Below, in pieces: positions 14,377 through 63,410 of a DNA stretch of 64,000 bases (positions are counted from its first letter, which is position 1; every line of letters starts with the position of its first letter). Made by a program: the position numbers and the translations under genes. Under the pieces are notes generated by a model, which saw only the letters and a list, made by a program, of their open reading frames with translations, was not told the DNA's origin and did no database searches. Source of the DNA: Mya arenaria (lineage: Eukaryota; Mollusca; Bivalvia; Myida; Myidae); the NCBI RefSeq assembly GCF_026914265.1, contig NC_069124.1:89928628-89992627 (forward strand), given 5' to 3'.

Positions 14377-17300
14377 TTACATTACTTTTTCAGACTTAAC
14401 AAGCACTTGGTGATCAGCTCTTTTTTCCACTGCTCTGAGGTATCTATGTATAAATAGTCTGAACCGGTAGAGGAAAAAGATCCAGCAATGAATAAGTGGA
14501 GCAACAAGAACTATGGACACAAGCAGAGTGGAGACGGCCGTACGGAAGTTGTTGGCGTAATCCAGTGGCTTGTAGATGTAGGGTTCCCCCTTGTGGTTTG
14601 TGCCACCACACAGGTGGTACACGTAGCTAAACCCTGCATAAACCACTCCAAGACTGGCACACTGGTAGAGGTGCAGCATGCGCATTGGCGTACGTGATAT
14701 GAGCGTGTCAACAACGACAAATATCGCATTGATTCCATGTGTGGTGCAGTTGATTAATGTTACTCCACTTCCTAGATGAAGAAGTTTTGAATCATGATAT
14801 ATAACAATACATAATCTTCCCAAATTCATGATTGAAGTACATGATATATTTATGAGACAAATATTATTAAATTAATTAGACACTCAGTTAACATGCTTTG
14901 TTGCAAGAGCAGCTAACAACAAGATGCCACAAGTAGATGCCTTTACTTCTTTTTTTCAGTCGTTCAAAAGACATACATGTAACTCAATAAATATTTTAGT
15001 CAAAGTTATCATTGAACTTGCTACACACAGTGAATTGTAAGAATGAACATTCATATCAAGTATAACATCATTTTATTATTTTTCTTTACCAGTTTCAAAG
15101 TCATTGCCAAGAAACCAGTTTTTGCACACTGCCGCATACAAATGTACAACAATACCAATTGCTATGACAAAACCCAGACTCAGATAAATACATGCTAAAA
15201 TAAACTATGAGCTGTCCTTGCTACAAATCAGACAAACAGAAGTAATTGTTAAAGATTAATTGGCCTTACCATCATATGCTATAGTCCAGAAGAGGACGGA
15301 CACAAGGGGTGCAGCGTCGCTGGACAGGTTGTGAAGCAGCCATTGTACCTTGATTCTCCGCTTGTTTCTCAACCTCGCATGCACATCTGAACAAACATTT
15401 ATCTTTTAATACTTATTTCAAGATTATGACCTTGAGGAAGATGACGAGGATCATGAGGAAAAACACCTTATAAATCATTATAATTATATTGTCAATCTCT
15501 TGTAAAGTGAATTCAAAATTAAACATGAAACAGGAAAATTTGCCTCATCAACTCAAATGCTTTCACAAGCTCAGGTGGTTCCATTAGAGTAACTATTTTT
15601 GCTAATCAAAAGTAAAACTTAACAAAACTATTAATACCTACTACATTTAAAACAACTCCTGATATGAAAAAAATCCAGATTGACAACCCACCTTCTCCCC
15701 TTCTCTTGAGCCCGATGTAATGCCAGCAGTTGGCTGCCCGGACAATCTGACAAGCCACCAGAATGTAGAAGGACCAGTATGTGAGCATGATTACCATCTT
15801 TGTCCCAATTGTTCCATAAATTGCAGTGTACCAAACCATCAGGAAGAAATAAAGGGCAACTATGGTCCTGTAGATTGCATAAGGCACTGGATTGTCACTC
15901 CACTAGAAAGGTAATTTTGGTATTAGTTTTCATTCAAACAAGTGCACAGAAATACTTTTTTCAACATAAACATAACTACATGTAGATGGTTGTTTTTGGA
16001 AATAAAATGAGATGTCTCCCAACATGCTGGTCTCAATTTGTTCCACAACCTATGACTTTTGAACACATGGAGAGGATTGTTCGTGTTGTGTCGAAGAGTT
16101 AGTAGATATGGAAAGGACTTTTGGTGTTGAATTGATGAAGTTAATTTTTCACCCTTCACCTTCAAGGAGTTTAGGAGATATGGAGCGGACATGAAATCTA
16201 TGGCTCAAATACTGAACTTGCACGCCTGTCATGTAAGTTCTGCAACATGTCTCGATGAAGTGAACATTTAACCAGACTTTATGAAATCCTTATGGTGTTT
16301 TAGGATGTATGTAAAAGACATGAAATCTATAACTTGAACCTTTGACCTTGAACTGTCACCTTGACCTCATGCTGGCACACCAGTAATTAGGGTCCTGCAT
16401 GACATCTTGATGTTGTGTTCATTTCACCCCAGTTTAACAAAAATCCTTTAGGTTAACTTTAGGAGGTACAAGGACAAGAAACCTATGGCTCGAACTTTTG
16501 ACCTTGAACAGTGACCTTGAGATGACACATGGAATATGGGTTTCAAACATCGTCTTGATGTGGTGAACATTTGATTCGAGTTTCAAAAAATTCTTCCAAG
16601 GGTTTAGAGATATCAAGCCAACAACAAATGTATGGCTCAACTCATTCATCTTGAACTGTGACCGTGACTCTGTGCAGCTGCAGTGTGTGTATTTTGCATG
16701 TCATAAAATAAATTTACATTTTCCCCAAGTTTCATGAAAATCTCTCAAGATGTTTGAGATATGGAGCAGACATTAAATTAATGCCAGTGATTTTTCTTTT
16801 CAATTTACTGCCTTCTAAACCTGTTTCCCCTTGCAAATAACTGTCCATTTTACCCACATATAAAGAGAAATTAATAAAGACCTAAGAATGTCTACTATTG
16901 GTATGATTGGATGTTTTCCAAAAGTCTGATTTTTTTTCTGAATTTGGAAGACACATACCACTGAATAATTTTCAAAACTATAATTGTGCCTCAAGTGACA
17001 CAGGAAACTCATGTAAACAAAATGTTAAAGATTCACTCTTTCTCCAAAATAAGATTTACCACAATAAATACTTTTGTTTTAATATTTCAAAATGTATGAA
17101 TAAATCTCGAAAAATGTGGTTCTTATGAAGGGTACCGAATTGAAATCAAAAGAAATGAGCATAAAACACGATATCTCTACCTTATAAAACTATAGTTATA
17201 AAACAGTTAATCTTTTAGCATTCACCAATCATTTAATATTTTTGCACTTTCTGCTATCAAATACAAGGCTACAATTTTTATATAAGTAATTAATATGTTC

Positions 17301-27600: not shown

Positions 27601-29984
27601 CGAGAAATACAGCTCCCAGCTGCAGCCATTTGGACAAATGACTATGAAAGCAGCTCAAGGTTTGTTTACTTTTAATTTTTCTCAGAATAAAACTCATCTT
27701 GAATTTTTTTTAGTTTTTAGCATTACTAAAGATTAAAAAATAAAAGCCTCAGCAATTACTTCATGTTCTGGTTAAGGTTTTGCATGTCAGCACACATAAG
27801 GCAATATCTCAGCAACTACTTGATGTATTGCATTGAAACTTAATTCAAGGGTTATCAACCATAACATAGATCTACTTAATTGATAAAGTTAAATAACTCT
27901 ATCCTTCATAAAGTGCATACTATCGCCCGTTTTTATTCGACTTAAAAATTCTTAAAAGCTTTTGCATGTTAGCCTGCATAAGTCAATATTTCCATCAAGT
28001 CTGTATTTCACTGGCTGAATGTTTTGGATAGAAATATTACACAAATCCTTCCTTGCTTCATTCCAATCTAATTCAATTGTGATCCATGCATGTTTTACCA
28101 AAACCTTCTATCCTTAAACTCAAAAGCTGCAGAATAGTCGAGCGTGTTGTCTCTGTAACATATCTTGTTATAATTATATCTTCTCTGACTATCAGTTTCT
28201 TTTCCATTTGTAGCTATTTCATGTGTGTTAGTGTATGTTTTAAAGTAGTTCATTCCTTTTTGTGTTTAGCAGCTGCTGTAGTGAGCACGGAAACACCAAA
28301 TTCTCCACAGCAGTTTGTGGTAAGGCCTTTTATTATTTCATCTCCTAACTTAATAGATTAACAAGCCCTGTATGTTTCAGCAAGAGTCAAGGAAGCATAA
28401 TGAATTTAAATGTTTTTATTCTTTTCCAGTTATCACAACAATTTCATGAGAATATTGTAAAGGAGCTTTGTAAAGACCTTGATCCTGATATGAGACATCA
28501 TTTAGAAGAGCTTTTGATACAACAAGGAAATAAAATGTATGATGCAGATGGAACTTTCAACATGGAAAAGGTGTGCTTTTTTATTTCTTCTTGCAAATGG
28601 TAACAGATACTTTGAAAATACCAATCAAAAGTTTTGTAATTATTGAAGTTTTAAAGAAGTACTCGTAAGAATAGCAGGCAAGTTTCTTGAAATCTCATGA
28701 ATTATAGTAAACCCTCTTGCTAGGCATCTTTACAAACTCGCATGGTTGGAATCTTAACAAACTATCATTCTTGGAATCATTACAAACTCACATGGTGGGA
28801 ATCTTTACAAATTATAGTGGTGGGAATTTTAACAAACTATCATTATTGGAACCATTGTAAACTTGTATGATGGGAATCTTAACAAACTATCATGGTGGGA
28901 ATCTTTACAAACTATCATGATAGGAATCTTAACAAACTATCATGGTGGGAATCTTTACAAACTATCATGGTGGGAATCATTACAAACTATCATGGTGGGA
29001 ATCTTTACAAACTATCATGATAGGAATCTTAACAAACTATCGTGGTGGGAATCTTAACAAACTATTGTGGTGGAAATCTTAACAAAGTATCATGGTGGAA
29101 TTCTTTACAGGCCATGCAGGGTTTAAGGGAAAATCAACAAAATCTCACCAAAAGTCTGGAGATGTTGGCTGCGATGGATAAAGGTGTTTTGAGAAAAATG
29201 GAAAGTTTGGTTGGCACAGAGATACCTACCTTATCTAGGTCTGTTCATTCATTATTTTTTTTAATTCCTATAATGCTTCCTTAGATAAACATATTCTTTG
29301 CATTCATATTCTGATAATTGCAATATCTCTGATACTGTAAAATCTTTGCTTGTGATTGTTGAAATTATATTTTAATGCATTAAAACTTGTGATGTCAATG
29401 AAACAAGTGAAGTCAATGACACAGCCAGATTTAAATAAAAGATAATATGTCTGAAGCATGATATTTCTGCATTTAAGTTTTGTTATCCAAGGGTGGCACA
29501 GATGTATGAAAACAGTGCTTGAACCGAATGTTTTCATACAATAATGCACACCAAGACTTAAACATTCAATGCTTAAGTGGAAATATTAATTGAAATTTAA
29601 ACACTAAAACAAGATTGTATTGCAGAATTTGAAAATATATGTAGCTCTCTAATTCATAAATTTGAAACTGTGTTGAAATAACATGTGCATTCCCCCCCCC
29701 CCCCCCCTTTGTTGTGATATGGATGTTTTCCTGTTTTACCAGTGAGGGAGAAAAGAGTGGGGAGAGTGATAACAGAAAGGTAGGGCTGGGAGAAGGGACC
29801 GAAAGTGGAACAGTTCAACACAGGGAGAGGAATCATACATCAGTCAGAGGTGGAGCAGTTCAACACAGGGAGGTGAATCATACATCAGGTGGAGGTGGAA
29901 CAGTTCAATATGGGGAGGCGGCTCATACATCAGGCAGAGGTGGAACTGCTCAACATGGGGAGGGGAATCATACATCAGGTAGAG
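24607..29984 (+). CDS. VWA gene, N-terminal exons 1-8 (coiled coil, low complexity, coding repeat)
   Basis: Exons: 24607-24642, 25274-25373, 25736-26369, 27493-27659, 28273-28319, 28430-28570, 29111-29238, 29743-29984. Phases at the junctions are 0, 1, 2, 1, 0, 0, 2 and 1, and all agree. Exon 2 is a heptad-like helix (LAETKENLEDIQSLNKQIL). Exon 3, the largest, is charged and probably disordered, with imperfect nine-residue repeats near VKHGELESV/VQHGDLRST and a KGILKQPSVGKKFSFEF patch. Exons 6-7 again look helical (MRHHLEELLIQQGNKM; LRENQQNLTKSLEMLAAM). Exon 8 contains a 45-bp coding repeat. Exon 5 has tandem acceptors (TAGCAG at 28267-28272) that add or drop one alanine. No known domain was recognised. 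Confidence 0.7.
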
Positions 29985-32900
29985 GTCTGCACATGCCTGT
30001 ATATCTTAGCTTGACGAAGGTGTAATCAGTACTTGAATTCATTTTGTTATGGTAAACTAATTGTCTCAACCCTTGCACCTTGAATTTTCAATGTAATGTT
30101 TTGCTTGTTTGATTCTTAGACTGTATCTTATTAATTTTTCAAATAACATTTGCACATGATGCTATTAAATTCATGACTAATCTTTGTTTGATAGGAGCAT
30201 GTACACCACAAGAGAGACAGGACTCCCCAGAGTCAGAGGAAGTGATAGAGACCGACCCAGCGGTATGGGTGCAATACGCCAACCAGGAGAAGGAGAAGGG
30301 GGCCCTTGCTCAGAAAATACGGGAGAATGGCATGGACACCATCATCTGCCTCGATGTATCCGGATCCATGAGGGGACATGCCTGGGATCAAGCTGTAGAG
30401 TTTGTACGCCGTTTTGTTGAGTGTAAGTTAGGTTGGATACTGTGCTGGATTATATAGGTCTAGGCATTTGAAAAGATATATAATACATGATTTCATATAT
30501 TGTTACTCTTCCCTTGATTTAAGTGATGTTGTTTTGATACAGTATTTTCCGTGGTTGTGAAATGGAATATATTTTTTTTGTGTTTTAATGTTTGTGGCAC
30601 TGTCCTGTTTTGATTTTGTCATGATATTCTGGTTGTAGACATTAGCACAGCAGAATTTGTATGTTTGCAGGCATCCAGAACACGACAGTTATGGACAATG
30701 ACTTTGAGCACCTGTCACTGGTCACATTCGGGGGTAGCAGCACCCGGGTTCAGCAGCATCTCACCTGTGACTACCTCGAGATCCTCAGAAAACTAGGTAA
30801 GATGGTTCAATGAAGTGTGATTCATGTGTTTTCTTTCATGGTTAGAATGGTGTAGTGGTTGTGGGTCCACCAGGGTGACTGTGGTCTAGGTGTGTGGCTC
30901 TCACACAAGAGGTGATGGGTCCACCAGGGTGACTGTGGTATAGGTGTTATAGGTGTGTGCCTCTCACCCAAGAGGTGGTGCTTCCACCAAGGTGACTGTG
31001 GTATAGGTGTGTGCCTATCACCCAAGAGGTGGTGCTTCAACCAAGGTGATCGTGGTATAAGTGTGTGCTTCTAACCTAAAAGGTGGTGGGTCCACCTGGA
31101 TGACAGTGGTTTAGTGGAATAGGTGTCTGCCTATCACCCAAGAGGTTGTGGGTCTGAGCCCCACCAGGGTGGGTGTGGTTTAGTGGTATAAGTGTCTGCC
31201 TATCACCCTTGAGTTTGTGGGTCTGAGTTCCACCAGGGTGACTGTGGTCTAGTGGTATAGGTGTCTGGGCCCAATAAGGGTACTGGGGCCTAGTGGTATA
31301 CATGTAGGTGTCTGTCTATCACCCAAGAGGTTGTGGGTTTTATTCCCACTGATCCCCACCATGGTGGATTTTTAATGGCCTCACAAAATGCTTGTTTCTA
31401 ATAGACTTGAGTGTGATTCTATAAGCTATCAACTTTAGTCACGATGGAGCTGAAAAAGATAAGTATATTCTTATACTTAGGAATATGCCTCCTGTTTCAG
31501 ATGGGTTGAAGCCCTCAGGCCCCTCCCCCTTGCTGGCAGGATTGTTCATGACAGAGGCTGCCATACTCGGAGCAGGTCAGTCTAGGGATGCACTTCTACA
31601 TTCTAGTACATAATTTTTATTTCAATCTTACTTTTAAGATTGACTGATCATATTTCAAGTAATGATTTTTTACTAAGTTTCTTTTTGGGAATGTTTCAAA
31701 CTTTGCCAACTGTAAGGTTACCGGTTTAAGACATGAAAGCATAATATTTTATTTGAAATTTATGTTCATTAAAAAAAAAAGCAACTGTTCTATTTTCTTC
31801 AAAATTAGAAAAAAGATATATGTGTGTACTAATGTATATACTTTTAAAGCTTATCTATCCAAATATTATGCAAGAGACCTGTTTTAACCACATTCTTCCA
31901 ATTTAGTCCTTGTATGAATGTCTTACAGGACAGAAATACATGGTGAACAAGTACAAGATAATGCCGCGGGTGTTCCTAGTAACAGATGGGAAGGCAACTC
32001 CAGCAGGACTGGTGGCTGGACCAGACCAACAACAGATGACCCTCTCATCAGCGGTCAGTAGTGTTACATGCCCATTATTAATTAAGGTTTAATCACCTAC
32101 CACTGTAAATGTTATTTCACAGAATGACTAGGGTGCTTATAGTTAATCATATTTTTTATCTGTAAAGATAATAATATATATTTATGCTACATGATTATTT
32201 GATTATTCTTTGCCTGTTTTGTTATCCCCTCCCCAACAGGAAGGTTACATATTTTGGAAACCAGTATTCGTGAAGGACAATCATCCATGTTGGTGTTTTC
32301 TGTCATGGATTCTGGGCAGTCTTAAATGAGCTTCATTACAAATACATCATTGTAGACTAAGTAAGATGAAATAAAGGCTATAATGAAGTATTTATGTTTC
32401 TAAAAACTGTGATACTTATCTCTGACTTCTTTGAACTGACTGCTTTTGTTCACCTTGATAAAAACAATTCTCATTGAGTTTCACTGACTGCATGATGACA
32501 GTGGAATGTCAGTTGTTATGCTCCCCGAAAAATTTCGGGCCAGCATATACACTGGTTTGTCTGCGTGTTTGTTCATCCTTTATTAGTGTCCACACTATTT
32601 CTCAGCAACAACCGGCTTGAATTCAATGATAGATTTACTAACAAGAGGAGATGCTTAGTATCAGCACATTTCAGTTGAATTACCTTTTACAGAGTTATGG
32701 TCCTTTTAATTTCTAAATAGGGGGATGTAAGTCCATTCGTGTTCATGCTGTTTCTCGACATTACTGGCTTGCATTCAGATAAACTTTATGGTTAGCTACA
32801 AGAGGAGATGAGCACATTCGGCAAGCAGGCTTGGTGATTTTTCACAGAGTTATGGCCCTTTTAATTTCTATGTAGTGTGATAAAGGACCAGACTCTATCG

Positions 32901-35900
32901 GTGTCTCAGCAACTACCAAATTGGGTTCAATGAAACTTTATGGGAAACTTTACTTACACAGAGTTACGGCTGTTTCAATTTCTATAAAGTGAATTCAATG
33001 AATCATTATGGCAGGCTTTACTTACAAGGAGAGATGCACATATTATCAGCACGTTCATGTTTGATAATTGTTCAAAGAGTTATAGCTCTTTAAATTCTGT
33101 GAAGTGGGATAAAGGGCCATTTGTACATAGGCTATTTCTCATTCACTTCTGGCTTGAATTCGATGAAACTTTATTGGACTTTTACTTACAAGAGAATATG
33201 TGCATAAATTATATCATCATAAGCACAGTTTGTACCCTGTCAGGGAGCATACATCTATATACGGTAATTATTCCTGCAGGAGGTGTGTAACATACTGAAG
33301 TTCGCTGAGCAGTTTGTACAACTGGATATACGCTTGTTTCCAGTTCCTGTTGGAGACTTTGATATGGTAGGTAGAAGTTAAAAACAAACAATTGTTATGG
33401 GAATGTCACAGTAATGTAGAAGCATTTGGCATCCAAATAAATGCAATATAATTGTTTGTTGAAGGATGTTCAATGATCGTTGAAGAATGTTGTGAAACAC
33501 CCCAATTGGTGTTAGGTCCAGCTAGAAAGGTCAAGGCCGTAGTTAGCATTTGAATTATTTGGTAATGATGACATAAAGGTAAGGTTGAGAATCATATGAA
33601 CTAATATATTGTTCCCTTGATCAGTAGATGACTGCTCTTGAATTTGATCATGGTGTGAACGGCCAAGTGACCATAAGCATTTATAAAAAAGACACTGTTT
33701 AGGCAATACTTAGATAATAGAAACATGTTTCTTTACCATGGCATAGACTGTATTTATTTTGTGTCAGTATGGTACATGTAAAAGGTAAAATGAAAAGGTC
33801 ATGTTTAATATTTTTATGCTCAATGCTGTGTTGAAGGTTGATTAGATTCTCAAAACCGTACAATCATATCACACAGAATATTTTTACATGCAGTTACTCT
33901 TATAATTTACCTATAATATCAGAAAATATGCCTGTCTTTTCCCGCTTCTATTTTTAAATGTTGATAACATTAAATACTTGCATATAGGCTAAACTCACTG
34001 TTTTTGCCTAAGGGCAAATAATAAAAATCTGGTAAGCACTCAAGTGAGAATGTCTTGACAGTGTCATGGTTACCATCATCTTCAGTGACTGCTCTTGTGA
34101 TTGATTATGAAAGAATCATTGTTGGTATTCCAGAACCTTCTTGAAGAACTTGCCAAAGTGACGAAAGGAGCTATTGTGTCACCTGATGATTGGCGCATCC
34201 AGTCTTCTGTCTTCAAAAACTATGTAAGCACTGGTTTTCTTTCCTTGATTTGTGCAGGAATCATAACGATCACTTAGTCATTTTCTGTATAACAAAATAA
34301 TTGACAATCAAGTAAGAATTTATATATAAATGTTGAAAATATTAAACTAAAAATTAACATAGTACTAATGTGCAGGTGTGATTTCAGAAAACAGCTGCCA
34401 AGTTTGGTGGTCTGACTGGTGACCCTGAATTGACCTCAATGCTGATGGGGGGGGATGTCAGATACAGACAGGGTGAGACACCACAGGGGACATTTGTACA
34501 TTGTTGATGAGATTGTGTACTTCTCTTCCTTAAATCTAGTATTTATATGTAATAAAAATAAAAAGTCTCAAATGATAATGTTTCTATATCCATTATCCAG
34601 GGGTGCCTAATTTGATTATCATTAAACTGAATACTGAGACTAGTTGCACATAAATTGAGACTTAGATTCTTACTTTTTTAAAGATCATTGATATGGCTGT
34701 TGATCCTCATTCAGGCAAATATTATATTAAGCTATGTTATACTGCTACACTCATTTACTGACTGTTAGCTTCAGCATCATGTTTTGGTTCATTGTCTTGG
34801 CCAGGCCCAGTGTGAGGAATTCCTACGGAGTCACAGTCCAGAGGCGGACAGCGACAGTGACTGTGAGGATGACACCCTGCCACCCCTAGGCTCCCGTGTG
34901 CAGCGGTGTGTTGGCGAGGCTTCCATCATGGCCAACATTGGCCAGAGTCTGGGAACAGTCACCAAGCACATGGATGATGGTCAGTCTTCATTGACATACT
35001 TTTGTATTTCTACAATTTAGACTATTAAGTGTTAAGTGATGTATGTATTACATACTTATGTATTTCTACAAGTAAGACTATTATATATCAAGTGTTGTAT
35101 GTATCACATACTTTTGTATTTCTACAAGTTATACTATTAAGTATAACATAAAGTCTAGTATGTATCAGTCTTGAGTCTTGCTTGTGACCCTTACAAATTA
35201 TATCAAGCACCATCACACATAGTGATAAGTATCAGTCGAAATGGGTTTCTGTCTATTGGTGGTATAGGTCATGTGGGTGTGACATGGGACGAGCCAAACA
35301 AGGACAGCCCACTGAGGGAGAAAGTACGCTATAGTCCTAGCCAGAGAGACGTGGTCGTTGTCAACACTCCACGCCACCTGCACAATGAGATTATTGCTGT
35401 TGGCTGTAGGGTCAGAAGAGGTGTGCATTTCATTGACCAGTGTATTATCTTACATGTCATAGTATTTTCATGTTGTAAAACTAGCAACAGCTGCATGCAA
35501 TTAAGCAATGGAAAAGTAAAGAATGATATTAATGCTGTAATGATTAGAGCATTAATATCATTCTTTACTTCAATCTCTAGGGAGTTGTCAGTATATTTTG
35601 GTTTGTTGTTGCTATTTTGCAGGTGCTGACTGGTGCTACCCTGACCAGGACGGAGGGGCAGGAAACCTTGGTAACGTGTATCATGTCGGATCTAACGGCA
35701 TAATCAAGGTTACTTCCCCTTACCTTGCAATAGAGATACTTTGCATAAGTTTCGCTATGTCCTTAATGTAATTTCATAGAAGGTAATTGATGATGTTCTA
35801 TACAAGATTGCCCCGACAGCTCAGTGGAAGAGCATCAGCTTTGGAAGGGGGTTCAAACCATGGGCATTTCATACCAAAGTTGATATAAAAATGTTACTGT

Positions 35901-38900
35901 TGAACATACCATTTGAAGAGTGAAAACTAGCATATTTGGGATAGCAGCAACTGTCATGTACAGCATATTATATTCAAGAGAAACTGTGCTGATCGTGTGT
36001 TTGTGTTGTACGTGAGATGGAACGGTGCTGATCGTGTGTTTGTGTTGTAGGTGAGATGGAATAGTGCTGATCGTGTGTTTGTGTTGTAGGTGAGATGGAA
36101 CGGTGCTGATCGTGTGTTTGTGTTGTAGGTGAGATGGAATAGTGCTGATCGTGTGTTTGTGTTGTAGGTGAGATGGAACGGTGCTGATCGTGTGTTTGTG
36201 TTGTAGGTGAGATGGAATAGTGCTGATTGTGTGTTTGTGTTGTAGGTGAGATGGAATAGTGCTGATCGTGTGTTTGTGTTGTACGTGAGATGGAATAGTG
36301 CTGATCGTGTGTTTGTGTTGTAGGTGAGATGGAACTATGCTGATTGTGTGTTTGTAACTGTGTTTGTGTTGTAAGTGAGATGGAATAGTGCTGATCGTGT
36401 GTTTGTGTTGTAGGTGAGATGGAATGGTGCTGATCGTGTGTTTGTGTTGTAAGTGAGATGGAATAGTGCTGATCGTGTGTTTGTGTTGTAGGTGAGATGG
36501 AATGGTGCTGATCGTGTGTTTGTGTTGTAAGTGAGATGGAACTATGCTGATCGTGTGTTTGTGTTGTAGGTGAGATGGAATAGTGCTGATCGTGTGTTTG
36601 GGTTGTAAGTGAGATGGAATAGTGCTGATCGTGTGTTTGTGTTGTAAGTGAGATGGAACTATGCTGATCGTGTGTTTGTGTTGTACGTGAGATGGAATAG
36701 TGCTGATCGTGTGTTTGTGTTGTAAGTGAGATGGAACGGTGCTGATTGTGTGTTTGTGTTGTAGGTGAGATGGGACTGTGCTGATCGTGTGTTTGTGTTG
36801 TAGGTGAGATGGGACTGTGCTGATCATGTGTTTGTGTTGTAGGTGAGATGGAATAGTGCTGATCGTGTGTTTGTGTTGTAGGTGAGATGGAACAGTGCTG
36901 ATCGTGTGTTTGTGTTGTAGGTGAGATGGAACGGTGCTGATTGTGTGTTTGTGTTGTAGGTGAGATGGAACGGTGCTGATTGTGTGTTTGTGTTGTAGGT
37001 GAGATGGGACTATGCTGATCGTGTGTTTGTGTTGTAGGTGAGATGGAACGGTGCTGATCGTGTGTTTGTGTTGTAAGTGAGATGGAATAGTGCTGATCGT
37101 GTGTTTGTGTTGTAGGTGAGATGGAACAGTGCTGGTCGTGTGTTTGTGTTGTAGGTGAGATGGGACAGTGCTGATCGTGTGTTTGTGTTGTAGGTGAGAT
37201 GGAACAGTGCTGATCGTGTGTTTGTGTTGTAAGTGAGATGGGACTATGCTTCTCGTGTGTTTGTGTTGTAGGTGAGATGGAACGGTGCTGATCGTGTGTT
37301 TGTGTTGTAAGTGAGATGGGACTATGCTGATCGTGTGTTTGTATTGTGAGATGGAATAGTGCTGATCGTGTGTTTGTGTTGTAGGTGAGATGGAACAGTG
37401 CTAATCGTGTGTTTGTGTTGTAGGTGAGATGGGACTATGCTGATCGTGTGTTTGTGTTTTAGGTGAGATTGGACTATGCTGATCGTGTGTTTGTGTTGTA
37501 GGTGAGATGGAACGGTGCTGATCTTGTGTTTGTGTTGTAGGTGAGATGGGACAGTGCTGATCGTGTGTTTGTGTTGTAAGTGAGATGGAACAGTGCTGAT
37601 CGTGTGTTTGTGTTGTAGGTGAGATGGAATGGTGCTGATCTTGTGTTTGGGTTGTAGGTGAGATGGGACAGTGCTGATCGTGTGTTTGTGTTGTGAGATG
37701 GAATAGTGCTGATCGTGTGTTTGTGTTGTAGGTGAGATGGAACAGTGCTGATCGTGTGTTTGTGTTGTAGGTGAGATGGGACTATGCTGATCGTGTGTTT
37801 GTGTTTTAGGTGAGATTGGACTATGCTGATCGTGTGTTTGTGTTGTAGGTGAGATGGAACGGTGCTGATCTTGTGTTTGTGTTGTAGGTGAGATGGGACA
37901 GTGCTGATCGTGTGTTTGTGTTGTAAGTGAGATGGAACAGTGCTGATCGTGTGTTTGTGTTGTAGGTGAGATGGAATGGTGCTGATCTTGTGTTTGGTTA
38001 GTAGGTGAGATGGGACAGTGCTGATCGTGTGTTTGTGTTGTAGGTGAGATGGAACAGTGCTGATCGTGTGTTTGTGTTGTAGGTGAGATGGGACTATGCT
38101 GATCGTGTGTTTGTGTTGTAAGTGAGATGGGACTATGCTGATCGTGTGTTTGTGTTGTAGGTGAGATGGAACGGTGCTGATCGTGTGTTTGTGTTGTAGG
38201 TGAGATGGAACAGTGCTGATCATGTGTTTGTGTTGTAGGTGAGATGGAACAGTGCTGATCGTGTGTTTGTGTTGTAGGTGAGATGGAATAGTGCTGATCG
38301 TGTGTTTGTGTTGTAGGTGAGATGGAACGGTGCTGATCGTGTGTTTGTGTTGTAGGTGAGATGGAATGGCGCTGATCGTGTGTTTGTGTTGTAAGTGAGG
38401 TGGAATAGTGCTGATCGTGCGTTTGTGTTGTAAGTGAGATGGAACTATGCTGATCGTGCGTTTGTGTTGTACGTGAGATGGAATAGTGCTGATCGTGTGT
38501 TTGTGTTGTAAGTGAGATGGAATGGTGCTGATCGTGTGTTTGTGTTGTAAGTGAGATGGGACTGTGCTGATCGTGTGTTTGTGTTGTAGGTGAGATGGGA
38601 CTGTGCTGATCGTGTGTTTGTGTTGTAGGTGAGATGGAATAGTGCTGATCGTGTGTTTGTGTTGTAGGTGAGATGGGACTGTGGGTACAAGGACAGGTAC
38701 AAGTTTGGAGCTGAGGGAAAGTTTGAGCTGGAAGTTGTGTAAGTCGTCTTGTGTCCAATTATCAGTATTCATGATCAGTTACACAAAGGGTTTCTCACTT
38801 TAAACATAGTGCTTTGTTAAAGATTTTCCAACCTTTTGTTCTTGAATTATCTGACCAACAGATTTGTTTGTCAAAATAAGCTTGTATAACATTATGTACA

Positions 38901-41900
38901 CTCTACATGGACAAACATATACATGTGTCTAAGTATTGAATAAAACGTTCTTTTGCCAGTACTGAAGACAGGCAGGATGTGTCGGAAGGTGCACCAGTGA
39001 CACAACAGGATGTGACGGAGGATGAGCGTATTGCACAGCTCAACAAACGCAACCTCACAGACTCAACCATTAACACAGGTGGGCAAAGACGTTCTCATTA
39101 ATATTCAGGTTTTATGAATATAATTAATTATGTTTTAGTAATGTTGCTCTTGTTTCCAGGTTTGATGATTAAGTCTTATTAGTTCATGCAGATTTCATTG
39201 TGTTTATCTTTAAAACGTGTAAATGGGCAAGATAAGTTCAAGTCCATTCCTTCTTTAACTGTACTGTTGAACTTCAGTGTTTTACTGTAGATCAGTCTGA
39301 ATCCTGTCACATTCTGTACAATTTCACTGACAATAAATATAGGTTTCATATTTTTATATTCAATTGTAACACTTGCATATGATAAGTGATAGTTGTTTTC
39401 CAGTTGCTCTGATGTTTGTTCTTTATTCTGTGTGACTGTACAGGTATATTTCTAGGGTCAGGGGCCCAGTGGCACTGGCTTGAGGGGGAAACCTGGAGAC
39501 CATACCCGGACAGTGTCAGCAAACAGGTGGAGGACAAATACATGGAAAACCCGAGGGGAACTGTCATCATTAACGTCAACGGAAAATCGTATGTAGTCTG
39601 GTTTGTTGTAATTTATAATCTTTTCATGATGAGATTTTGTGACAGTGCTTGTCTGCAGAATATCTCGTTTAGTTTAATTGTTTGGTAAATCTCAAAAGTA
39701 ACTCCAAATTTAAGCCACTTTTATGTTTAAAAATAGTAGTATTATGTCTTATGCAACCATAACTGAAATGTTTAGTATCCGATTATGATAAAACTTGGTT
39801 ACAGTGCTTGTCGGCATGATATCTTGGACAAGTTTGTGTGGTGGTAAATGGCATCAGTAAATCCAGAGTTATCAACCTTTTTTATGTTAACAAAATACAG
39901 TTTTATGTCTTTTGCAATTTTGCAAACAATAACTTCAGTACGATTATCCAATCATGATGAACTTGTCTACAGTTTTTGGGCCCTGATGACTCAGTCACGT
40001 TTGAATGTGTGATAAATGGCTTCGGTAACTCAATTTCCTACAAAGTTTTACTCCTTGTACATTAAAATTGGTAATATAATTGACTATAATTGGTAGAATA
40101 ATTGACTATAATTTGTGCTCCAAACGGGACACGGCCATTTCCATGAACTTCTAGTTAAGATTTAATTGGTATAAGTAATTTCTGGACATCAGTCATAAAG
40201 GTTTTTACAAAATGTACCTAGGAATATTAGGTTGAGACCGTTTTAAGGTCATACTTAGGTCAATCTTCACAAAACTATGTCAAAATATCTATCTCTTTAA
40301 TAACTAAGTTAAGTTTGATAATGAATAAAGACTAGTCCAAAAGTAGGTCAAACCTTTTAGCAATCAAGTGGCCACATTTGTAATCTTCTTGAAACATGGT
40401 TAAAATGTTTGTCTCTTCAAAATCAAGTCAAGTTGATAAATTCATATGGGGCCATTGATATTCGTCGTTCAATGTTTTTATGTCCTTTGGTGAATTAGCC
40501 AATCCCTGTTATTTCATGTTCAATCAGGATGAGTGTTACATGTCTTGTCAAATCAGAATGAGTGTTATATTTCATGTCCAATCAGAATGAGTGTTATATG
40601 TCATGTCCAATCAGAGTGAGTGTTATATTGCATGTCCATTCAGAATGAGTGTTATCATGTGCAATCAGAATGAGTGTTATATGCGACATTTCTCTGTCAC
40701 ATAGAAATATGTGAATCCTGTGCAATGATAACTCGGTTTGAGGAATGGTCTACATGTAGATTTATATGTATTGTAGATGTTGAATTGGGTTTCATACATG
40801 TAGTTATGCTTCAAAATATAAATTTTAAAATTGTATGAATACATCTACATTGACATTGACATTCTACAATGTACATCAAACTAACGTTCTTAGATTGTTA
40901 CGGATGTAGCAACAGTTTACCTATGTTCAACAACATGCTAAGATCTAATTGGTATCATGTTTATCAATAAAGGTGTTAAAATGCAAATAAGTATTATTTC
41001 TTTCTCAAACTTTATGGGCCACATGACACATTGGACACATGATCATGTCATATTTCGTTGCTGCCAAATATAGCTGCATGTATGCAATCATGAATTATGA
41101 CTTCAGTACACGTATACCTGTAGTAACCAGGTGCAATGCCTTTTTTCCACGTAAGGAAGTCTATACATGTATAATTGTCGAAATCCAGTAAGTTAGATGT
41201 GTTATTATTTCACCGTTTTCTAAATGATTGACAACAGTTGACCGTACATGTATTTGAAATATGAGTAAGACACTACTTTGGTCCAGTTACGTTTGTTAGA
41301 TGACTTATTGAGCTTTCAAAATGATTGATCGCCATCATGAATAAGCAAAAGAAAAACACAGCACCTAAAGGTCATGGATAGTTTCCACTGTTATCGGATC
41401 CACAGTACTCTCTCCGGAAGTCCGCTTGTATTTTATTCTACTAAAATAATCGAAACTACAAAATAAATGTTAAGATTTAGGCCATGCGATATCAAACAAA
41501 AACATCATCGGAACCAGCATCTTGAAGGCCATGCGGTATCGGAACCAGCATCTTGAAGGCCATGCGGTATCGGAACCAGCATCTTGAAGGCCATGCGGTA
41601 TCGGAACCAGCATCTTGAAGGCCATGCGGTATCGGAACCAGCATCTTGAAGGCCATGCGGTATCAAACAAGAATATCATCGGAACCAGCATCTTGAAGGC
41701 AATGCGGTATCAAACAAGAATATCATCGGAACCAGCATCTTGAAGGCCATGCGGTATCAAACAAGAATATCATCGGAACCAGCATCTTGAAGGCAATGCG
41801 GTATCGGAACCAGCATCTTGAAGGTCACGCGGTATCGGAACCAGCATCTTGAAGTCAAAGCGATATCAAACAATAACATCATCGGAACCAGCGTCTTGAA

Positions 41901-47189: not shown

Positions 47190-47950
47190 AGTAGATCTCA
47201 CGATACCTGATACGGTGCCTGCAGCCTCAAACCTTAAACATGCAGTTGACCTGACGATACCTGATACGGTGCCTGCGGCCTCTAACCTTAAACATGTATT
47301 TGACCAGACGATACCTGATACGGTGCCTGCGGCCTCTAACCGTAAACATGTATTTGACCTGACGATACCTGATACGGTGCCTGCGGCCTCAAACCTTAAA
47401 CATGTATGTGACCTCACGATACCTGATACGGTGCCTGCGGCCTCTAACCGTAAACATGTATTTGACCTCACGATACCTGATACGGTGCCTGCGGCCTCTA
47501 ACCTTAAACATGTATTTGACCTGACGATACCTGATACGGTGCCTGCGGCCTCAAACCTTAAACATGTATTTGACCTCACGATACCTGATACGGTGCCTGC
47601 GGCCTCTAACCTTAAACATGTATTTGACCTGACGATACCTGATACGGTGCCTGCGGCCTCAAACCTTAAACATGTATTTGACCTGATGATACCTGATACG
47701 GTGCCTGCGGCCTCAAACCTTAAACATGTATGTGACCTCACGATACCTGATACGGTGCCTGCGGCCTCTAACCTTAAACATGTATGTGACCTCACGATAC
47801 CTGATACGGTGCCTGCGGCCTCAAACCTTAAACATGTATGTGACCTCACGATACCTGATACGGTGCCTGCGGCCTCAAACCTTAAACATGTATGTGACCT
47901 CACGATACCTGATACGGTGCCTGCGGCCTCAAACCTTAAACATGTATGTG
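47190..47950. repeat. 54-bp minisatellite, about 14 units, open on both strands
   Basis: Units contain ACGATACCTGATACGGTGCC, TGCGGCCTCAAACCTTAAAC and ATGTATTTGACCT. The plus frame 47176-48009 would encode 18-residue repeats (DLTIPDTVPAASNLKHVF). Units differ at a handful of positions, some synonymous (CTC/CTG, TCA/TCT) and some not (CTT/CGT, TTT/TGT). I call it a non-coding minisatellite, because the minus strand is equally open and the tail after the array is not protein-like. Confidence 0.85.
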
Positions 47951-49031
47951 AGAAACGTGCGTTTCAGGGCATCCTTCTTATTTACTCGAACCACTGTGGT
48001 GTTCGGTAACGTAAATTACACCCTATTAGCATATTACTTTCAGAATATGTATTAAAATATTAACATATCTTAGGGTTTTTACTTTTACACTTATAAAGAA
48101 ACTTCCGTCATTAAAACATTAAAAAAAAGCTATAGATAGAATGATCAAACCTTTCGGAATGCTTAAGTTAAGCCATCCATCATTAGGCTGCAAAGATGTG
48201 TTAGTGCAATTTGACATTTTTTGCGTTGATTATTTTTTGGAATAACACCACAATGACGCTACTGTTACATGTATGATATGATATAATATAGTAATGTGAG
48301 GAAATAAAACTAGTTTACTATGATTATATGGCAAATGTTTAGTTAGTTTCTTAATATAATGCCTATATAAAAAACTTCCTGTGAAAACTTTAAAATCATT
48401 AAAACTTAACATTTTGTAACTTTTAAATGAAACTACCAGTAGCATGTTTTTGGTGTATTAATTATGGCTTAATTGAACTAGTGTCTAACCCAGATTTAAA
48501 TTTAGGGTTCATCCCTTTAAATGGCTTAAATACTGCAGGATTAAAGATGGTAAATACTAAAATACTTCGCTTTAAATTGAATAAAACTGATTAAAATGTT
48601 GATGTTTTTCTCATGTAAAGGTGCAAGTGTCCGCCTAGAGGTGTTAAAATAGTTTTTATTCCGCTTCGTGCTGTGTATGGTAAACAAGTATGTCTAGTAT
48701 TGCAATAAAATATTCCCATAATTTATTTAGGCGATGGGTTTTTTACTTGTTTCGAGCCATTTTTAAATATATTTGAACAGAGTAAATAAGTATTAATCAA
48801 TATGTGATCAGTCTACGTGCGCATTCATTTGCAGAGCAAACAATACAGCAGTCTAAACTGGCTATGTACAATCTTCGAGTATTTTTACTTAAACTATGGA
48901 TAATAAGCTTATCCAAGCCAGGGCCAGAGTATGACCATCTGGACAACACTAAACGAATTGAAACACTTACACTAATGCATTATGTGAACTATGAAAGGCT
49001 GTTGGTTCTATGAACACAGAACAGTATACAG
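47951..49031. other. intergenic, no gene seen
   Basis: AT-rich. Short frames at 48230-48445 and 48804-49013 show no features of real genes. Confidence 0.45.
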
Positions 49032-55799: not shown

Positions 55800-55991
55800 G
55801 TAAAACAGCACATACACATACATCAGTAACACTATGGGATATGGGTTTATTTGTAAAGTGAAAAATGGTTAAAAACAACCAAACAAATTGTTTTTCGTCT
55901 CCTCATGCATACATAAATCACCATAAGAGAATGAACCGAATACTTGTCAATACCATTATAATGCAATTTATCGGGGATAATTTTGAATTAT

Positions 55992-58080
55992 TATCGATTT
56001 CGTTGTTATGTTATCTACCCTGGTATATCCTGAATTCTTGACGATATCGTTGTAATGTTATCTACCCTGGTATATCCTGAATTATTGTCGATATCGTTGT
56101 AATGTTATCTACCCTGGTATATCCTGAATTCTTGTCTATATCGTTGTAATGTTATCTATCCTGGTATATCCTTAATTCTTGTCGATATCGTTGTAATGTT
56201 ATCTACCCTGGTATATCCTTAATTCTTATCGATATCGTTGTAATGTTATCTACCCTGGTATATCCTGAATTCTTGTCGATATCGTTGTAATGTTATCTAC
56301 CCTGATATATCCTGAATTATTGTCTATATCGTTGTAATGTGCTCTACCCTGGTATATCCTGAATTCTTGTCGATATCGTTTTACTGTTATCTGCCCTGGT
56401 ATATCCTGAATTCTTGTCGATATCGTTGTAATGTTATCTACCCTGGTATATCCTGAATACTTGTCGATATCGTTGTAATGTTATCTGCCCTGGTATATCC
56501 TGAATTCTTGTCGATATCGTTTTACTGTTATCTGCCCTGGTATATCCTGAATTCTTGTCGATATCGTTGTAATGTTATCTACCCTGGTATATCCTGAATA
56601 CTTGTCGATATCGTTGTAATGTTATCTGCCCTGGTATATCCTGAATTCTTGTCGATATCGTTGTAATGTTATCTGCCCTGGTATATCCTGAATTCTTGTC
56701 GATATCGTTGTAATGTTATCTACCCTGGTATATCCTGAATTCTTGTCGATATCGTTGTTATGTTATCTACCCTGGTATATCCTGAATTCTTGTCGATATC
56801 GTTGTAATGTTATCTACCCTGGTATATCCTGAATACTTGTCGATATCGTTGTAATGTTATCTGCCCTGGTATATCCTGAATTCTTGTCGATATCGTTGTA
56901 ATGTTATCTACCCTGGTATATCCTGAATTCTTATCGATATCGTTGTAATGTTATCTACCCTGGTATATCCTGAATTCTTGTCGATATCGTTGTAATGTGC
57001 TCTACCCTGATATATCTTGAATTCTTGTCGATATCGTTGTAATGTGCTCTACTCTGGTATATCCTGAATTCTTGTCGATATCGTTGTAATGTTATCTGCC
57101 CTGGTATATCCTGAATTCTTGTCGATATCGTTGCAATGTTATCTACCCTGGTATATCCTGAATTCTTGTCGATATCGTTGTAATGTTATCTGCCCTGGTA
57201 TATCCTGAATTCTTGTCGATATCGTTGTAATGTTATCTGCCCTGGTATATCCTGAATTCTTGTCGATATCGTTGTAATGTTATCTGCCCTGGTATATCCT
57301 GAATTCTTGTCGATATCGTTGTACTGTTATCTGCCCTGGTATATCCTGAATTCTTGTCGATATCGTTGTAATGTTATCTGCCCTGGTATATCCTGAATTC
57401 TTGTCGATATCGTTGTACTGTTATCTGCCCTGGTATATCCTGAATTCTTGTCGATATCGTTGTAATGTTATCTGCCCTGGTATATCCTGAATTCTTGTCG
57501 ATATCGTTGTACTGTTATCTGCCCTGGTATATCCTGAATTCTTGTAGATATCGTTGTAATGTTATCTACCCTGGTATATCCTTAATTCTTGAATGTCGAT
57601 ATCGTTGTAATGTTATCTACCCTGATATATCCTGAATTATTGTCTATATCGTTGTAATGTGCTCTACTCTGGTATATCCTGAATTCTTGTCGATATCGTT
57701 TTACTGTTATCTGCCCTGGTATATCCTGAATTCTTGTCGATATCGTTGTAATGTTATCTACCCTGGTATATCCTGAATTCTTGTCGATATCGTTGTAAAG
57801 TTATCTGCCATGGTATATCCTGAATTCTTGTCGATATCGTTGTACTGTTATCTGCCCTGGTATATCCTGAATTCTTGTCGATATCGTTGTAATGTTATCT
57901 GCCCTGGTATATCCTGAATTCTTGTCGATATCGTTGTACTGTTATCTGCCCTGGTATATCCTGAATTCTTGTAGATATCGTTGTAATGTTATCTACCCTG
58001 GTATATCCTTAATTCTTGAATGTCTATATCGTTGTAATGTTATATATCCTGTTATATCCTAAATTCTTGTCGATATCGTT
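55992..58080. repeat. 47-bp minisatellite, about 44 units
   Basis: Each unit holds GTCGATATCGTTGTAATGTT, ATCTACCCTGGTATATCC and TGAATTCTT. Each carries the 8-bp palindrome CGATATCG. Variants (TAC/TGC before CCTGG, AATG/ACTG) are distributed in blocks, indicating duplication of several units at once. Located in DUOX intron 3. Confidence 0.95.
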
Positions 58081-58084
58081 TTTA

Positions 58085-58880
58085 TTTTATCTTAGAGATG
58101 TATAGATGTCATAATACATAGATGCACACAACACTTACCACACAATACAAGCGTTCAAGCCCTTATAGCCTATGCAACTAACCCTGTTAACATATTTTGG
58201 GCATTCAAGGCTCAACTAATGAGGTCAACCTCCAAATCTAGCTCAAAAGCCGGAACTTGGAGCTGAACCAAGTATCGCAAACTGTGAACATGTAAATAAT
58301 GCCACTTGTCGCTAACAAATGCTTCTTATGTGACGGCACATGAGAATACCTAACCATATGCCACATCCATTGGCATTCGGCCGTGATTTCTCATCGATGA
58401 ATTCATTTTAGTCTTCAAGAAAAGGAAAGCTTTCTTATAGTAAGAGTTGCAAGGTTTTGGACCGCTTGTTTAACTTCACATTAAAATTGTGCACCATATT
58501 TCGTTATCGACGTTACAATGATATATCCGCAAGTCATCCTAGCCTCACAACAGCAAAAGAAGTAGCAATTTTATAATGCTTTACAAAATTGTAAATTGGA
58601 TTCATATTCTACAATGGAATGTGACTTTTGTGACCGAAATAGTTATTTCTACACGAATTAGCGAATATTCGTAAACATTTGGCCCTTTTCCACAAAAGAA
58701 CACACTTTTTACAATATGTTGATCATTTTCTGTAAATGATCACTTACTTCACATCTTTATTTGATGGAAATGTAATTCGCACGACTACTTTTGAGTGTTT
58801 AATTTATTGACACGGCTATCCATAGCACGTCAAACTTAATTTATCTATTGTAGTTGTTGATTGCGTCTCATCATCAAACC
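58085..58880. other. intron spacer, no exon found
   Basis: Searched for the next DUOX exon without success. Unremarkable AT-rich DNA. Confidence 0.4.
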
Positions 58881-58884: not shown

Positions 58885-60455
58885 ATAACCCGTAGCCCTG
58901 TATCCCGAATCCCTATAACCCTTATCCCTGTTACCCGAACCCTATAACCCGAAGCCATGTATCCCGAACCCCTATAACCCTTATCCCTGTTACCCGAACC
59001 CTATAACCCGAAGCCATGTATCCCGAATCCCTATAACCCTTATCCCTGTTACCCGAACCTTATAACCCGAAGCCATGTATCCCGAATCCCTATAACCCTT
59101 ATCCCTGTTACCCGAACCCTATAACCCGAATCCCTGTATCCCGAATCCCTATAACCCTTATCCTATCCCTGTTACCCGAACCCTATAAGTCGTAGCCCTG
59201 TATCCCGAATCCCTATAACCCTTATCCCTGTTACCCGAACCTTATAACCCGAAGCCATGTATCCCGAACCCCTATAACCCTTATCCCTGTTACCCGAACC
59301 CTATAACCCGAATCCCTGTATCCCGAATCCCTATAACCCTTATCCCTGTTACCCGAACCCTATAAGTCGTAGCCCTGTATCCCGAATCCCTATAACCCTT
59401 ATTCCTGTTACCCGAACCCTATAACCCGAATCCCTGTATCCCGAATCCCTATAACCCTTATCCCTGTTACCCGAACCCTATAACCCGAATCCCTGTAGCA
59501 CGAACCCCTATAACCCTAACCCTTGTTACCCGAACCCTGCAAAACGAAGCCCTGTAGCACGAACTGCTATAACCCTAATCCCTGTTACCCGAACCCTATA
59601 ATTCGAAGCCCTGTAGCCCGAACCCCTATAACCCTAACCCTTGTTACCCGAACCCTGCAAAACGAAGCCCTGTAGCACGAACCGCTATAACCCTAATCCC
59701 TGTTACCCGAACCCTATAAAACGAAGCCCTGTAGCCCGAACCCCTATAACCCTAATCCCTGTTACCCGAACCCCTATAACCCTAGCCCCTGTAGCAAAAA
59801 CCCCTTTAACCCTAACCCCTGTTACTCGAACCCTATAACCCAAAGCCCTGTAACACGAACCGCTGTTACCAGTACTCTAGAACCCGAAGCACTGTAACTC
59901 GAAGCACTGTAGGACGAACCCCTATAACCCTATTCCCTGTTACCCGAATCCTATAAATCGAAGCCCTTGTAGCCCGAGCCCCTATAATCCTAATCACTGT
60001 TACCCGAACCCAGCAAAACGAAACCCTGTAGCATGAACCCCTATAACCCTAATCACTGTTACCCTCACCCTGCTAAACGAAGCCCTGTAGTACGAACCCC
60101 TATAGCCATAATCACTGTTACCCTCACCGTGCTAAACGAAGCCCTTGTAGCCCGAGCCCCTATAACCCTAATCACTGTTACCCGAACCCAGCAAAACGAA
60201 ACCCTGTAGCACGAACCCTTATAACCCTAATCAGTGTTACCCGAACCCTGCAAAACGAAGCTCTGTAGTACGAACCCCATAACAGGGTTTGTGCTATGGG
60301 GTTCGAGCTACAAGAAATGGGGCTACAGGGGTTGGATTACAGGGTTTGTGCTATAGGGGTTCGAGCAACAAGAGTTCGGGCTACAGGGATGCGATATAGG
60401 GTTTGTGCTATAGGGGTTTGAGCTACAAGAGTTCGGGGTACAGGGGTTATACCCT
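58885..60455. repeat. 15-bp x 4 (60-bp) higher-order array with terminal inversion
   Basis: Four related 15-bp subunits, CCCTATAACCCGAAG, CCATGTATCCCGAAT, CCCTATAACCCTTAT and CCCTGTTACCCGAAC, form a 60-bp higher-order unit. The order degrades past about 59500. At 60271-60305 the polarity flips and the remaining units (to about 60450) are on the opposite strand. TAACCC recurs, but the spacing is not that of a telomere repeat. Confidence 0.9.
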
Positions 60456-61074: not shown

Positions 61075-62508
61075 TAGTGAGTTTCACGTAGCCTTCCTCG
61101 CCACTTTCACGTAGCCTTCCTCGCCATTGTCACGTAGCCTTCCTCGCCACTTTCAGGTAGCCTTCCTCGCCACTTTCACGTAGCCTTCCTCGCCACTGAC
61201 ACGTAGCCTTCCTCGCCACTTTCACATAGCCTTCCTCGTCACTGTCACGTAGCCTTCCTCGCCACTTTCACGTAGCCTTCCTCGCCACTGTCACGTAGCC
61301 TTCCTCGCCACTTTCAAGTAGCCTTCCTCGCCACTGTCACGTAGCCGTCCTCGCCACGTTCACGTAGCCTTACTCGCCACTGTCACGTAGCCTTCCTCGC
61401 CACTTTCACGTAGCCTTCCTCGCCACTTTCACGTAGCCTTCCTCGTCACTGTCACGTAGCCTTCCTCGCCACTTTAACGTATAGCCTTCCTCGCCACTGT
61501 CACGTAGACTTCCTCGCCACTGTCACGTAGCATTCCTCGCCACTTTCACGCAGCCTTCCTCGCCACTGTCACGTAGACTTCCTCGCCACTGTCACGTACC
61601 TTCCTCGCCACTGTCACGTAGCCTTCCTCGCCACTTTAACGTATAGCCTTCCTCGCCACTTTCACGTAGCCTAGCTAGCCACTTTCACGTAGCCTTGCTA
61701 GCCACTTTCACGTAGCCTTCTTCGCCACTTTCACATACCCTTCCTCGCCACTTTCACGCAGCCTAGCTCGCCACTTTCACATACCCTTCTCGCACTTTCA
61801 CGCAGCCTACCTCGCCACTTTCAAGTAGCCTTCCTCGCCACTGTCACGTAGCCGTCCTCGCCACGTTCACGTAGCCTTACTCGCCACTGTCACGTAGCCT
61901 TCCTCGCCACTTTCACGTAGCCTTCCTCGCCACTTTCACGTAGCCTTCCTCGTCACTGTCACGTAGCCTTCCTCGCCACTTTAACGTATAGCCTTCCTCG
62001 CCACTGTCACGTAGACTTCCTCGCCACTGTCACGTAGCATTCCTCGCCACTTTCACGCAGCCTTCCTCGCCACTGTCACGTAGACTTCCTCGCCACTGTC
62101 ACGTACCTTCCTCGCCACTGTCACGTAGCCTTCCTCGCCACTTTAACGTATAGCCTTCCTCGCCACTTTCACGTAGCCTAGCTAGCCACTTTCACGTAGC
62201 CTTGCTAGCCACTTTCACGTAGCCTTCTTCGCCACTTCCACATACCCTTCCTCGCCACTTTCACGCAGCCTAGCTCGCCACTTTCACATACCCTTCCTCG
62301 CCACTTTCACGCAGCCTACCTCGCCACTTTCACGTAGCCTTTCTCGCCACTTTCACGTATACCCTTCCTCGCCACTTTCACGCAGCCTAGCTCGCCACTT
62401 TCACGTAGCCTTTATCGCCAGTTTCACGTAGCCTTCCTCGCTACTTTCACGTAACCTAGCTCGCCACTTTCACGTAGCCTTCCTCGCCACTTTCACGTAA
62501 CTTTCTGT
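61075..62508. repeat. 23-bp minisatellite, about 62 units
   Basis: Units read CACTTTCACGTAGCCTTCCT then CGC, with TTT/TGT variation. A block near 61311-61780 recurs about 507 bases downstream (from 61818) with the same rare variants, such as CAAGTAGCC, CCGTCCTCG and CACGTTCACG, so several hundred bases were duplicated as one piece. Confidence 0.95.
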
Positions 62509-62516
62509 TGTTTTGT

Positions 62517-63360: not shown

Positions 63361-63410
63361 TATTCAAATGCACGAAGTACTTATGCTAGGTTTACATTAG
63401 GCCACGATTA

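What the first reader, a model, noticed from the sequence alone, without database searches (positions are those of the whole stretch)
35985..38667. Intron filled with ~68 tandem copies of its own 3' splice site, each laid out like a recursive splice site
Seen: every 39-bp unit carries the acceptor context TGTGTTTGTGTTGTAG followed at once by GTGAGATGG. The last copy is the acceptor of the MIB/HERC2 exon at 38668, whose first bases are GTGAGATGGGACTGTG. Known: a 3' splice site immediately followed by a 5' splice site (AG|GTRAG) defines a recursive, zero-length-exon site. Here most units have AG|GTGAG; a minority read GTAAGTGAG, a strong donor. Inference: the intron could be removed in steps, or upstream copies could act as decoys. 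Splicing to a decoy without re-splicing would read VRWDCADRVFVL and then stop at the TAG of the next acceptor, giving an mRNA open to decay. Array length could therefore tune expression of this protein.
Basis: partly seen in the sequence, partly recalled or inferred. Interest (0 to 1): 0.88.

Follow-up and report, generated by a model that had tools for sequence, protein, structure and literature searches.

The report
Intron of repeated splice junctions
An animal gene has an intron that is nearly all 39-letter copies of its own end plus the start of the next exon, a known kind of repeat ("mirage") in which most copies could be both a splice end and a splice start, so it offers a test of how cells ignore or correct dozens of false splice sites.

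Summary
Window 35983-38683 is a 39-bp tandem array of 69 units. It fills 91% of the intron 35709-38667 of a gene encoding VWA, MIB_HERC2 and WWE domains. Each unit is the last 23 nt of the intron (CTGAT branch-point-like motif, GU-rich tract, TAG) plus the first 16 nt of the exon (GTGAGATGGGACTGTG). AG|GT is intact in 47 of 69 junctions: the real one and 46 decoys. All 46 decoys would meet a stop codon after 11-25 codons.

Tandem duplication of an intron-exon boundary is already described: amphioxus "mirages" (PMC3087553, PMC3902484), reported not to disturb splicing, and a single duplication in potato (PMC4974935). I file this as a large mirage. Its special point: the exon starts with a strong donor, so splicing to any decoy would rebuild AAG|GTGAGA, scoring far above the intron's own AAG|GTTACT, and a decoy choice could be spliced out again. 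Recursive splicing or dose control by array length is untested: no RNA, other individuals or orthologues were available.

The parts
35983..38683 (+). 39-bp tandem array, 69 units; unit = 23 nt intron end + 16 nt exon start
   Evidence: TRF; unit table; columns
35709..38667 (+). host intron, 2959 bp, 91% array; own donor AAG|GTTACT scores 4.36, lowest of the 11 donors scored in my gene model
35623..35708 (+). upstream exon, first half of the MIB_HERC2 domain, ends ...ATAATCAAG
38668..38738 (+). real downstream exon (71 nt), second half of MIB_HERC2; begins GTGAGATGG, so the spliced junction reads AAG|GTGAGA; own donor TGT|GTAAGT scores 5.37
36051..38629 (+). 46 decoy AG|GT junctions (first and last decoy exon starts given)
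38397..38553 (+). run of five consecutive units without AG (anchor positions), lying just upstream of the last two decoys (38590, 38629); part of a block similar to 36611-36845
38645..38667 (+). real acceptor: CTGAT (candidate branch A at 38648, 19 nt before the splice), GU-rich tract, TAG
   Evidence: CTGAT intact in 63 of 69 units
35983..35988 (+). ACTGTG at the left edge of the array, same as 38678-38683 at the right edge: possible slippage seed
   Evidence: a left-flank match as good arises in 11.7% of shuffles

Best explanation
This is a large 'mirage': a minisatellite made by tandem duplication of a segment that spans a 3' intron-exon boundary, here expanded to 69 copies inside the intron (shown by sequence). 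It most likely began by slippage between short repeats (ACTGTG) 39 bp apart on either side of the junction (inferred) and grew by local and block duplication (repeated blocks are seen). It most likely has no dedicated function. It is tolerated because splicing still ends at the last acceptor (inferred from precedent). Part of the reason (inferred, about 35% likely to matter in vivo) is that the duplicated exon starts with a strong donor: a molecule spliced to a decoy regains AAG|GTGAGA, exposes it to the next acceptors, and can be re-spliced forward until the real exon is reached. The rest of the reason would be ordinary exon definition making decoys little used.
For: Unit = intron end + exon start, with the authentic junction as last copy. 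Exon-derived bases of decoys have lost their coding constraint: the base that keeps Asp in the real exon is changed in 50 of 68 decoy units. Array turnover looks like a minisatellite's: a 9-unit offset with a run of 5 identical unit pairs and a similar block 36611-36845 / 38397-38631. The window has many other tandem arrays (94 overlapping TRF rows). Donor scores rank AAG|GTGAGA 10.72 > unit TAG|GTGAGA 9.27 > own donor 4.36, the order that would favour re-splicing under donor competition as shown in flies (PMC8605326, passages). 43 of 46 decoys have a donor of score 9 or more within 100 nt downstream. Donor columns 24-29 hold 1 minor base in 414 cells, against 22 of 69 for the acceptor G; six random columns do as well with P 0.0025. 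In an idealised model with uniform acceptor choice, re-splicing at 90% efficiency lifts correct product from 2% to 50% (minimum intron 60 nt) or 71% (minimum 39 nt).
Against: No RNA data. The intron is 3 kb, short for fly and sawtooth-detected human recursive introns (though lariat work reports a broader size range, with conventional splicing preferred below 1 kb; PMC10156609, passages). Adjacent units are 39 nt apart, probably too short for an intron (recalled), so the decoy at 38629 could not re-splice to 38668. By the same donor logic the real exon (rebuilt donor 10.7 against own donor 5.4) should itself be at risk of being skipped. The donor-column test is post hoc, columns share descent, and the unit finder used GAG(A/G)TGG or GAGATTGG as its anchor. 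The splice-site matrices are recalled human-like frequencies, not this species'. Local folding does not favour the real acceptor: it is less open than the mean junction upstream (0.28 against 0.51, sd 0.16).
Confidence: 0.68

Rival explanations
1. Mirage with silent decoys: exon definition across 38668-38738 leaves the 46 decoy acceptors unused; the recursive layout is an accident of the exon starting with GTGAG.
For: Amphioxus Adh, troponin C and globin repeats that duplicate splice sites are reported, and PGBD5 repeats are argued, not to disturb mRNA splicing (PMC3087553, PMC3902484; passages). 22 of 69 units have lost AG.
Against: 42 of 46 decoy acceptors score exactly as the real one (7.98), and 43 of 46 have a donor of score 9 or more within 100 nt downstream that could define an exon, while the real exon's own donor scores 5.37. 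Fold openness does not favour the real site.
Confidence: 0.4
2. Functional rheostat: decoy use yields early-stop mRNA, and array length sets protein level.
For: 46 of 46 decoys give an in-frame stop within 11-25 codons; in the idealised model without re-splicing only 2% of choices are right if all sites are equal.
Against: Precedent arrays leave splicing normal. One third of units have lost the acceptor. The only hint of upkeep is in the donor columns, not the acceptor.
Confidence: 0.1
3. GU-rich protein platform: the array binds many copies of UGU-binding splicing factors (CELF/Bruno type, motif recalled) and acts by that, not by its splice sites.
For: TGTGT 51.4 per kb in the array against 1.44 elsewhere in the window; TGTTTG 25.3 against 0.70. 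A C. elegans minisatellite is over-represented near alternatively spliced regions (PMC4039745, abstract).
Against: The GU tract is simply the intron's own pre-acceptor tract repeated; factor binding untested.
Confidence: 0.1
4. Assembly artefact.
For: Long repeats are prone to misassembly; copy number may be inexact.
Against: 37 distinct unit types in 69 units and ordered block duplications are not what a simple artefact gives.
Confidence: 0.03

Closest known systems
Amphioxus 'mirages' (Adh3, globin BflGb6/9, troponin C, PGBD5; PMC3087553 and PMC3902484, passages read; the original Adh paper, NAR 2002, not held)
   Same: Minisatellite-like tandem duplication of an intron-exon boundary beside the authentic one; many but not all repeats keep AG/GT signals; [quoted passage not shown]
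   Different: BflGb6 has 3 or 6 units of 150-160 bp by haplotype and BflGb9 a 157-bp duplicate; Adh3 units are 10-72 bp. Here 69 units of 39 bp. Whether the known ones rebuild a strong donor at the exon start was not stated in the passages read. Host species here not identified.
Intron gain by tandem duplication across a boundary, potato RdRp gene (PMC4974935, abstract and results section read)
   Same: Duplicated segment crosses intron end and exon start; exonic bases upstream supply a GTAAG donor, the downstream copy the branch site, tract and acceptor.
   Different: One duplication giving one RNA-confirmed new intron that leaves extra exon sequence in the mRNA; here 68 extra copies and no transcript evidence.
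Recursive splice sites (fly ratchet points, PMC8605326) and annotated RS-exons (PMC6224609); passages read
   Same: Acceptor immediately followed by donor; the spliced junction rebuilds a 5' splice site; a further donor usually lies less than 100 nt downstream.
   Different: Known fly ratchet points lie mostly in long introns and no tandem array of them was described in the passages read; here 46 tandem decoys in a 3-kb intron, untested in RNA.
Human 6-16 (IFI6) minisatellite with multiple splice donors (Turri 1995; seen only as a citation in PMC3618361)
   Same: Minisatellite provides multiple splice sites (by its title).
   Different: Donors there; here coupled acceptor-donor junctions. Human origin and further details recalled, paper not held.

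Membership tests
[quoted passage not shown]
   23 nt intron + 16 nt exon; domain join
[quoted passage not shown]
   one window only
[quoted passage not shown]
   no RNA data
[quoted passage not shown]
   species not identified; protein search found no relative; own-genome search did not complete
Recursive splice site / ratchet point | acceptor directly followed by donor | tested here: met
   47 of 69 junctions, 46 of them decoys
Recursive splice site / ratchet point | another donor less than 100 nt downstream to define the exon | tested here: met
   43 of 46 decoys have a donor of score 9 or more within 100 nt; 46 of 46 at score 5.5 or more
Recursive splice site / ratchet point | long host intron (typical, not strictly required; a broader size range is reported in PMC10156609) | tested here: not met
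   2959 bp
Recursive splice site / ratchet point | intermediate junctions, lariats or saw-tooth coverage | not testable with these tools
   no RNA data; hence I say it is laid out like recursive sites, not that it is one
RS-exon (exon that rebuilds a 5' splice site at the preceding junction) | strong donor at the exon-exon junction | tested here: met
   AAG|GTGAGA 10.72, above all 11 donors scored in my gene model (4.36-9.39); recalled matrix, not MaxEntScan
RS-exon (exon that rebuilds a 5' splice site at the preceding junction) | skipped when the exon junction complex is depleted | not testable with these tools
   needs cells
Intron gain by tandem duplication | duplicate forms a new spliced intron | not testable with these tools
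   layout present, transcripts lacking

The most novel reading that the evidence does not exclude
The array is a self-correcting splicing ladder: the spliceosome can land on any of 46 decoys, and each landing rebuilds a donor stronger than the original one and re-splices forward by hops of two or more units until the real exon is reached. This would explain why mirages do not wreck mRNAs and would make array expansion nearly free of cost.
Probability: 0.25. Interest if true: 0.8.

Novelty: new member of a known kind. Interest (0 to 1): 0.5.

Why it matters
The name mirage dates from a 2002 paper; the passages I read give no explanation of why copied splice sites leave mRNA intact. This locus gives a clean natural test: acceptors of equal strength, a built-in donor in the decoys, early stops that mark every uncorrected error, and a weak first donor. 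If decoys are re-spliced, recursive splicing would be a repair route that lets boundary duplications, and hence new introns, survive.

Tried and rejected
Antisense gene in the array: long minus-strand frames (up to 515 aa) are what a stop-free repeat gives; no gene claimed. Protected real acceptor by RNA structure: not supported, it is less open than upstream junctions, and a 272-nt fold around it is no more stable than shuffles (z 1.02). Depletion of AG near the exon by selection: the run of five AG-less units is not unusual (P 0.11) and belongs to a duplicated block. Second array 28726-29109 as another mirage: its unit does not continue detectably into the exon (alignment score reached by 61.5% of shuffles; that test took the exon start as 29112, one base late). 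Relatives: 444 candidates, none at E 0.001 or better, among about 5.8 billion proteins; 0 viral contigs with the exact 25-mer; no Rfam family in the window; no tRNA by ARAGORN in 30500-39500. I did not scan genome contigs (bacteria and archaea), run any structure prediction, or test the minus-strand genes further.

Own slips: the typed protein included an upstream stretch that I later judged not to be exon; searches use the corrected model. In one search the score -11.58 for exon start 29112 is an off-by-one; the AG is at 29109-29110.

Full report
What is there. Window 35983-38683 holds a 39-bp tandem array; TRF gives 35982-38683, 69.2 copies, 90% match. My unit table lists 69 junctions from 36012 to the real one at 38668, spaced 39 bp in 65 cases, 35 in 2 and 51 in 1. 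The unit is CTGATCGTGTGTTTGTGTTGTAG followed by GTGAGATGGGACTGTG (16 exon bases, varied in most copies: the exon form of the last nine is kept at 5 of 69 anchors, the real one included). The 23-nt acceptor motif matches 67 times with up to 3 mismatches, only in the array, against 0.00 expected.

The host gene. Exons on the + strand encode a VWA domain (Pfam VWA_2 E 1.7e-12), a MIB_HERC2 domain (E 1.1e-16) and a WWE domain (E 2.6e-5). Exon borders are my own, from splice-site scores and reading frame. The MIB_HERC2 domain is split by the intron 35709-38667; joined, it aligns without a gap at the junction to HECTD1 (3dkm, E 2.6e-11) and also matches MIB1 (4xi6, E 7.1e-14). This supports 38668 as the real exon start. 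The protein has no relative at E 0.001 or better in the protein collection, which I take to say little for an animal gene. The species is not identified; introns and domains point to an animal, and a mollusc is a guess from recall.

State of the splice signals. AG|GT is intact in 47 of 69 junctions: the real one and 46 decoys. The other 22 are TAAGT 16, TACGT 4 and 4-bp deletions 2. The two deletions lie 347 bp apart, the same offset as the repeated block 37426-37660 / 37773-38007 (positions), so they are probably one event copied. CTGAT is intact in 63 of 69. With recalled human-like matrices, 42 of 46 decoy acceptors score as the real one, 7.98; 2 score 8.29 and 2 score 6.01. Donors: unit TAG|GTGAGA 9.27 in 47 of 69; intron's own AAG|GTTACT 4.36, the lowest of 11 in the gene model; real exon's TGT|GTAAGT 5.37; rebuilt AAG|GTGAGA 10.72. 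43 of 46 decoys have a donor of score 9 or more within 100 nt downstream; 36570, 37272 and 38356 do not.

What a decoy would do. From each of the 46 decoys the frame meets a stop after 11, 12, 16 or 25 codons. Adjacent units are 39 nt apart, with 20 nt from donor to the next candidate branch point, which I take from general knowledge to be too short; hops of two units or more (78 nt) would be possible. The decoy at 38629 is then a dead end; 45 of 46 decoys have a later AG|GT acceptor at 60 nt or more. In an idealised model with all acceptors equal, correct product is 2.1% without re-splicing; with 90% re-splicing per landing it is 71% (minimum intron 39 nt) or 50% (minimum 60 nt). If the real site outweighs all decoys together, the figures are 51% and 92-93%. 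These are illustrations, not measurements.

Origin and turnover. Both edges of the array carry ACTGTG, 2695 bp or 69 units apart. This fits birth by slippage between short repeats flanking the junction, but a flank match this good arises in 11.7% of shuffles, and the left copy might be a decayed unit, so the seed is inferred. There are 37 unit types in 69 units, a 9-unit offset with a run of 5 identical pairs, and a block 36611-36845 resembling 38397-38631 (sequences). Variable columns are the acceptor G (22 of 69) and four exon-derived columns (13-36 of 69); donor columns 24-29 have one minor base in all (P 0.0025 for six random columns). Three of 39 columns are at least as variable as the acceptor G, itself included. 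Columns near the three indels are slightly inflated. I read this as weak evidence that donors are kept; it was chosen after seeing the data, and the anchor used to find units overlaps these columns, although spacing shows that no unit was missed.

Comparison with what is known. [quoted passage not shown] It says that many but not all repeats contain AG/GT signals, that BflGb6 haplotypes have 6 and 3 units, and that Adh3 data and globin RT-PCR suggest no interference with regular splicing. The PGBD5 paper (passages) repeats this for Adh and troponin C. The potato paper (abstract and results) shows one duplication across a boundary turning into a real new intron, with the donor from exonic bases. 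[quoted passage not shown] My ten paper searches (capped listings) showed no paper that joins mirages with recursive splicing. None of them combined the word mirage with recursive splicing; held minisatellite and recursive splicing terms together, and the library has only open-licence papers, so this is weak evidence of absence.

Verdict. The array is real and is best called a large mirage: a new member of a known kind. The version I think most worth testing is the reverse of a decay switch: decoys that erase themselves by re-splicing. The same logic puts the real 71-nt exon at risk of skipping, which is a sharp prediction.

Noticed in passing
28726-29109: A 25-bp tandem array (15.4 copies) fills 71% of another intron of the same gene and its end runs into that intron's acceptor (ACAG at 29107-29110); by eye its copies mostly read TTTACAA or TTAACAA, and it holds no AG|GT.
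   Followed up: partly
36001-38000: GC skew +0.70 over the array: the RNA-like strand is G- and T-rich, a setting in which R-loops might form.
   Followed up: no
7365-13143, 47197-47951, 55984-58092, 58885-60448, 61082-63366: Other large tandem arrays; the window is rich in minisatellites (94 overlapping TRF rows).
   Followed up: no
5669-6895 (-): Open frame with reverse transcriptase similarity (Pfam RVT_1, E 6.2e-29), a retroelement piece.
   Followed up: no
14377-14871 (-): Exon-like frame matching Pfam Rost (rolling stone), E 6.3e-16.
   Followed up: no
1945-2469 (-): Frame with a weak DnaJ match (E 0.0011, below the curated cut-off); looks like an HSCB-type co-chaperone (recalled).
   Followed up: no
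35809-35858 and 30857-31267: tRNA-like stretches (SINE-like by eye) in introns of the gene; ARAGORN calls no tRNA in 30500-39500.
   Followed up: partly
35268, 35623 and 39444: Three other exon starts of my gene model also read AG|GT, but not AG|GTRAG.
   Followed up: no
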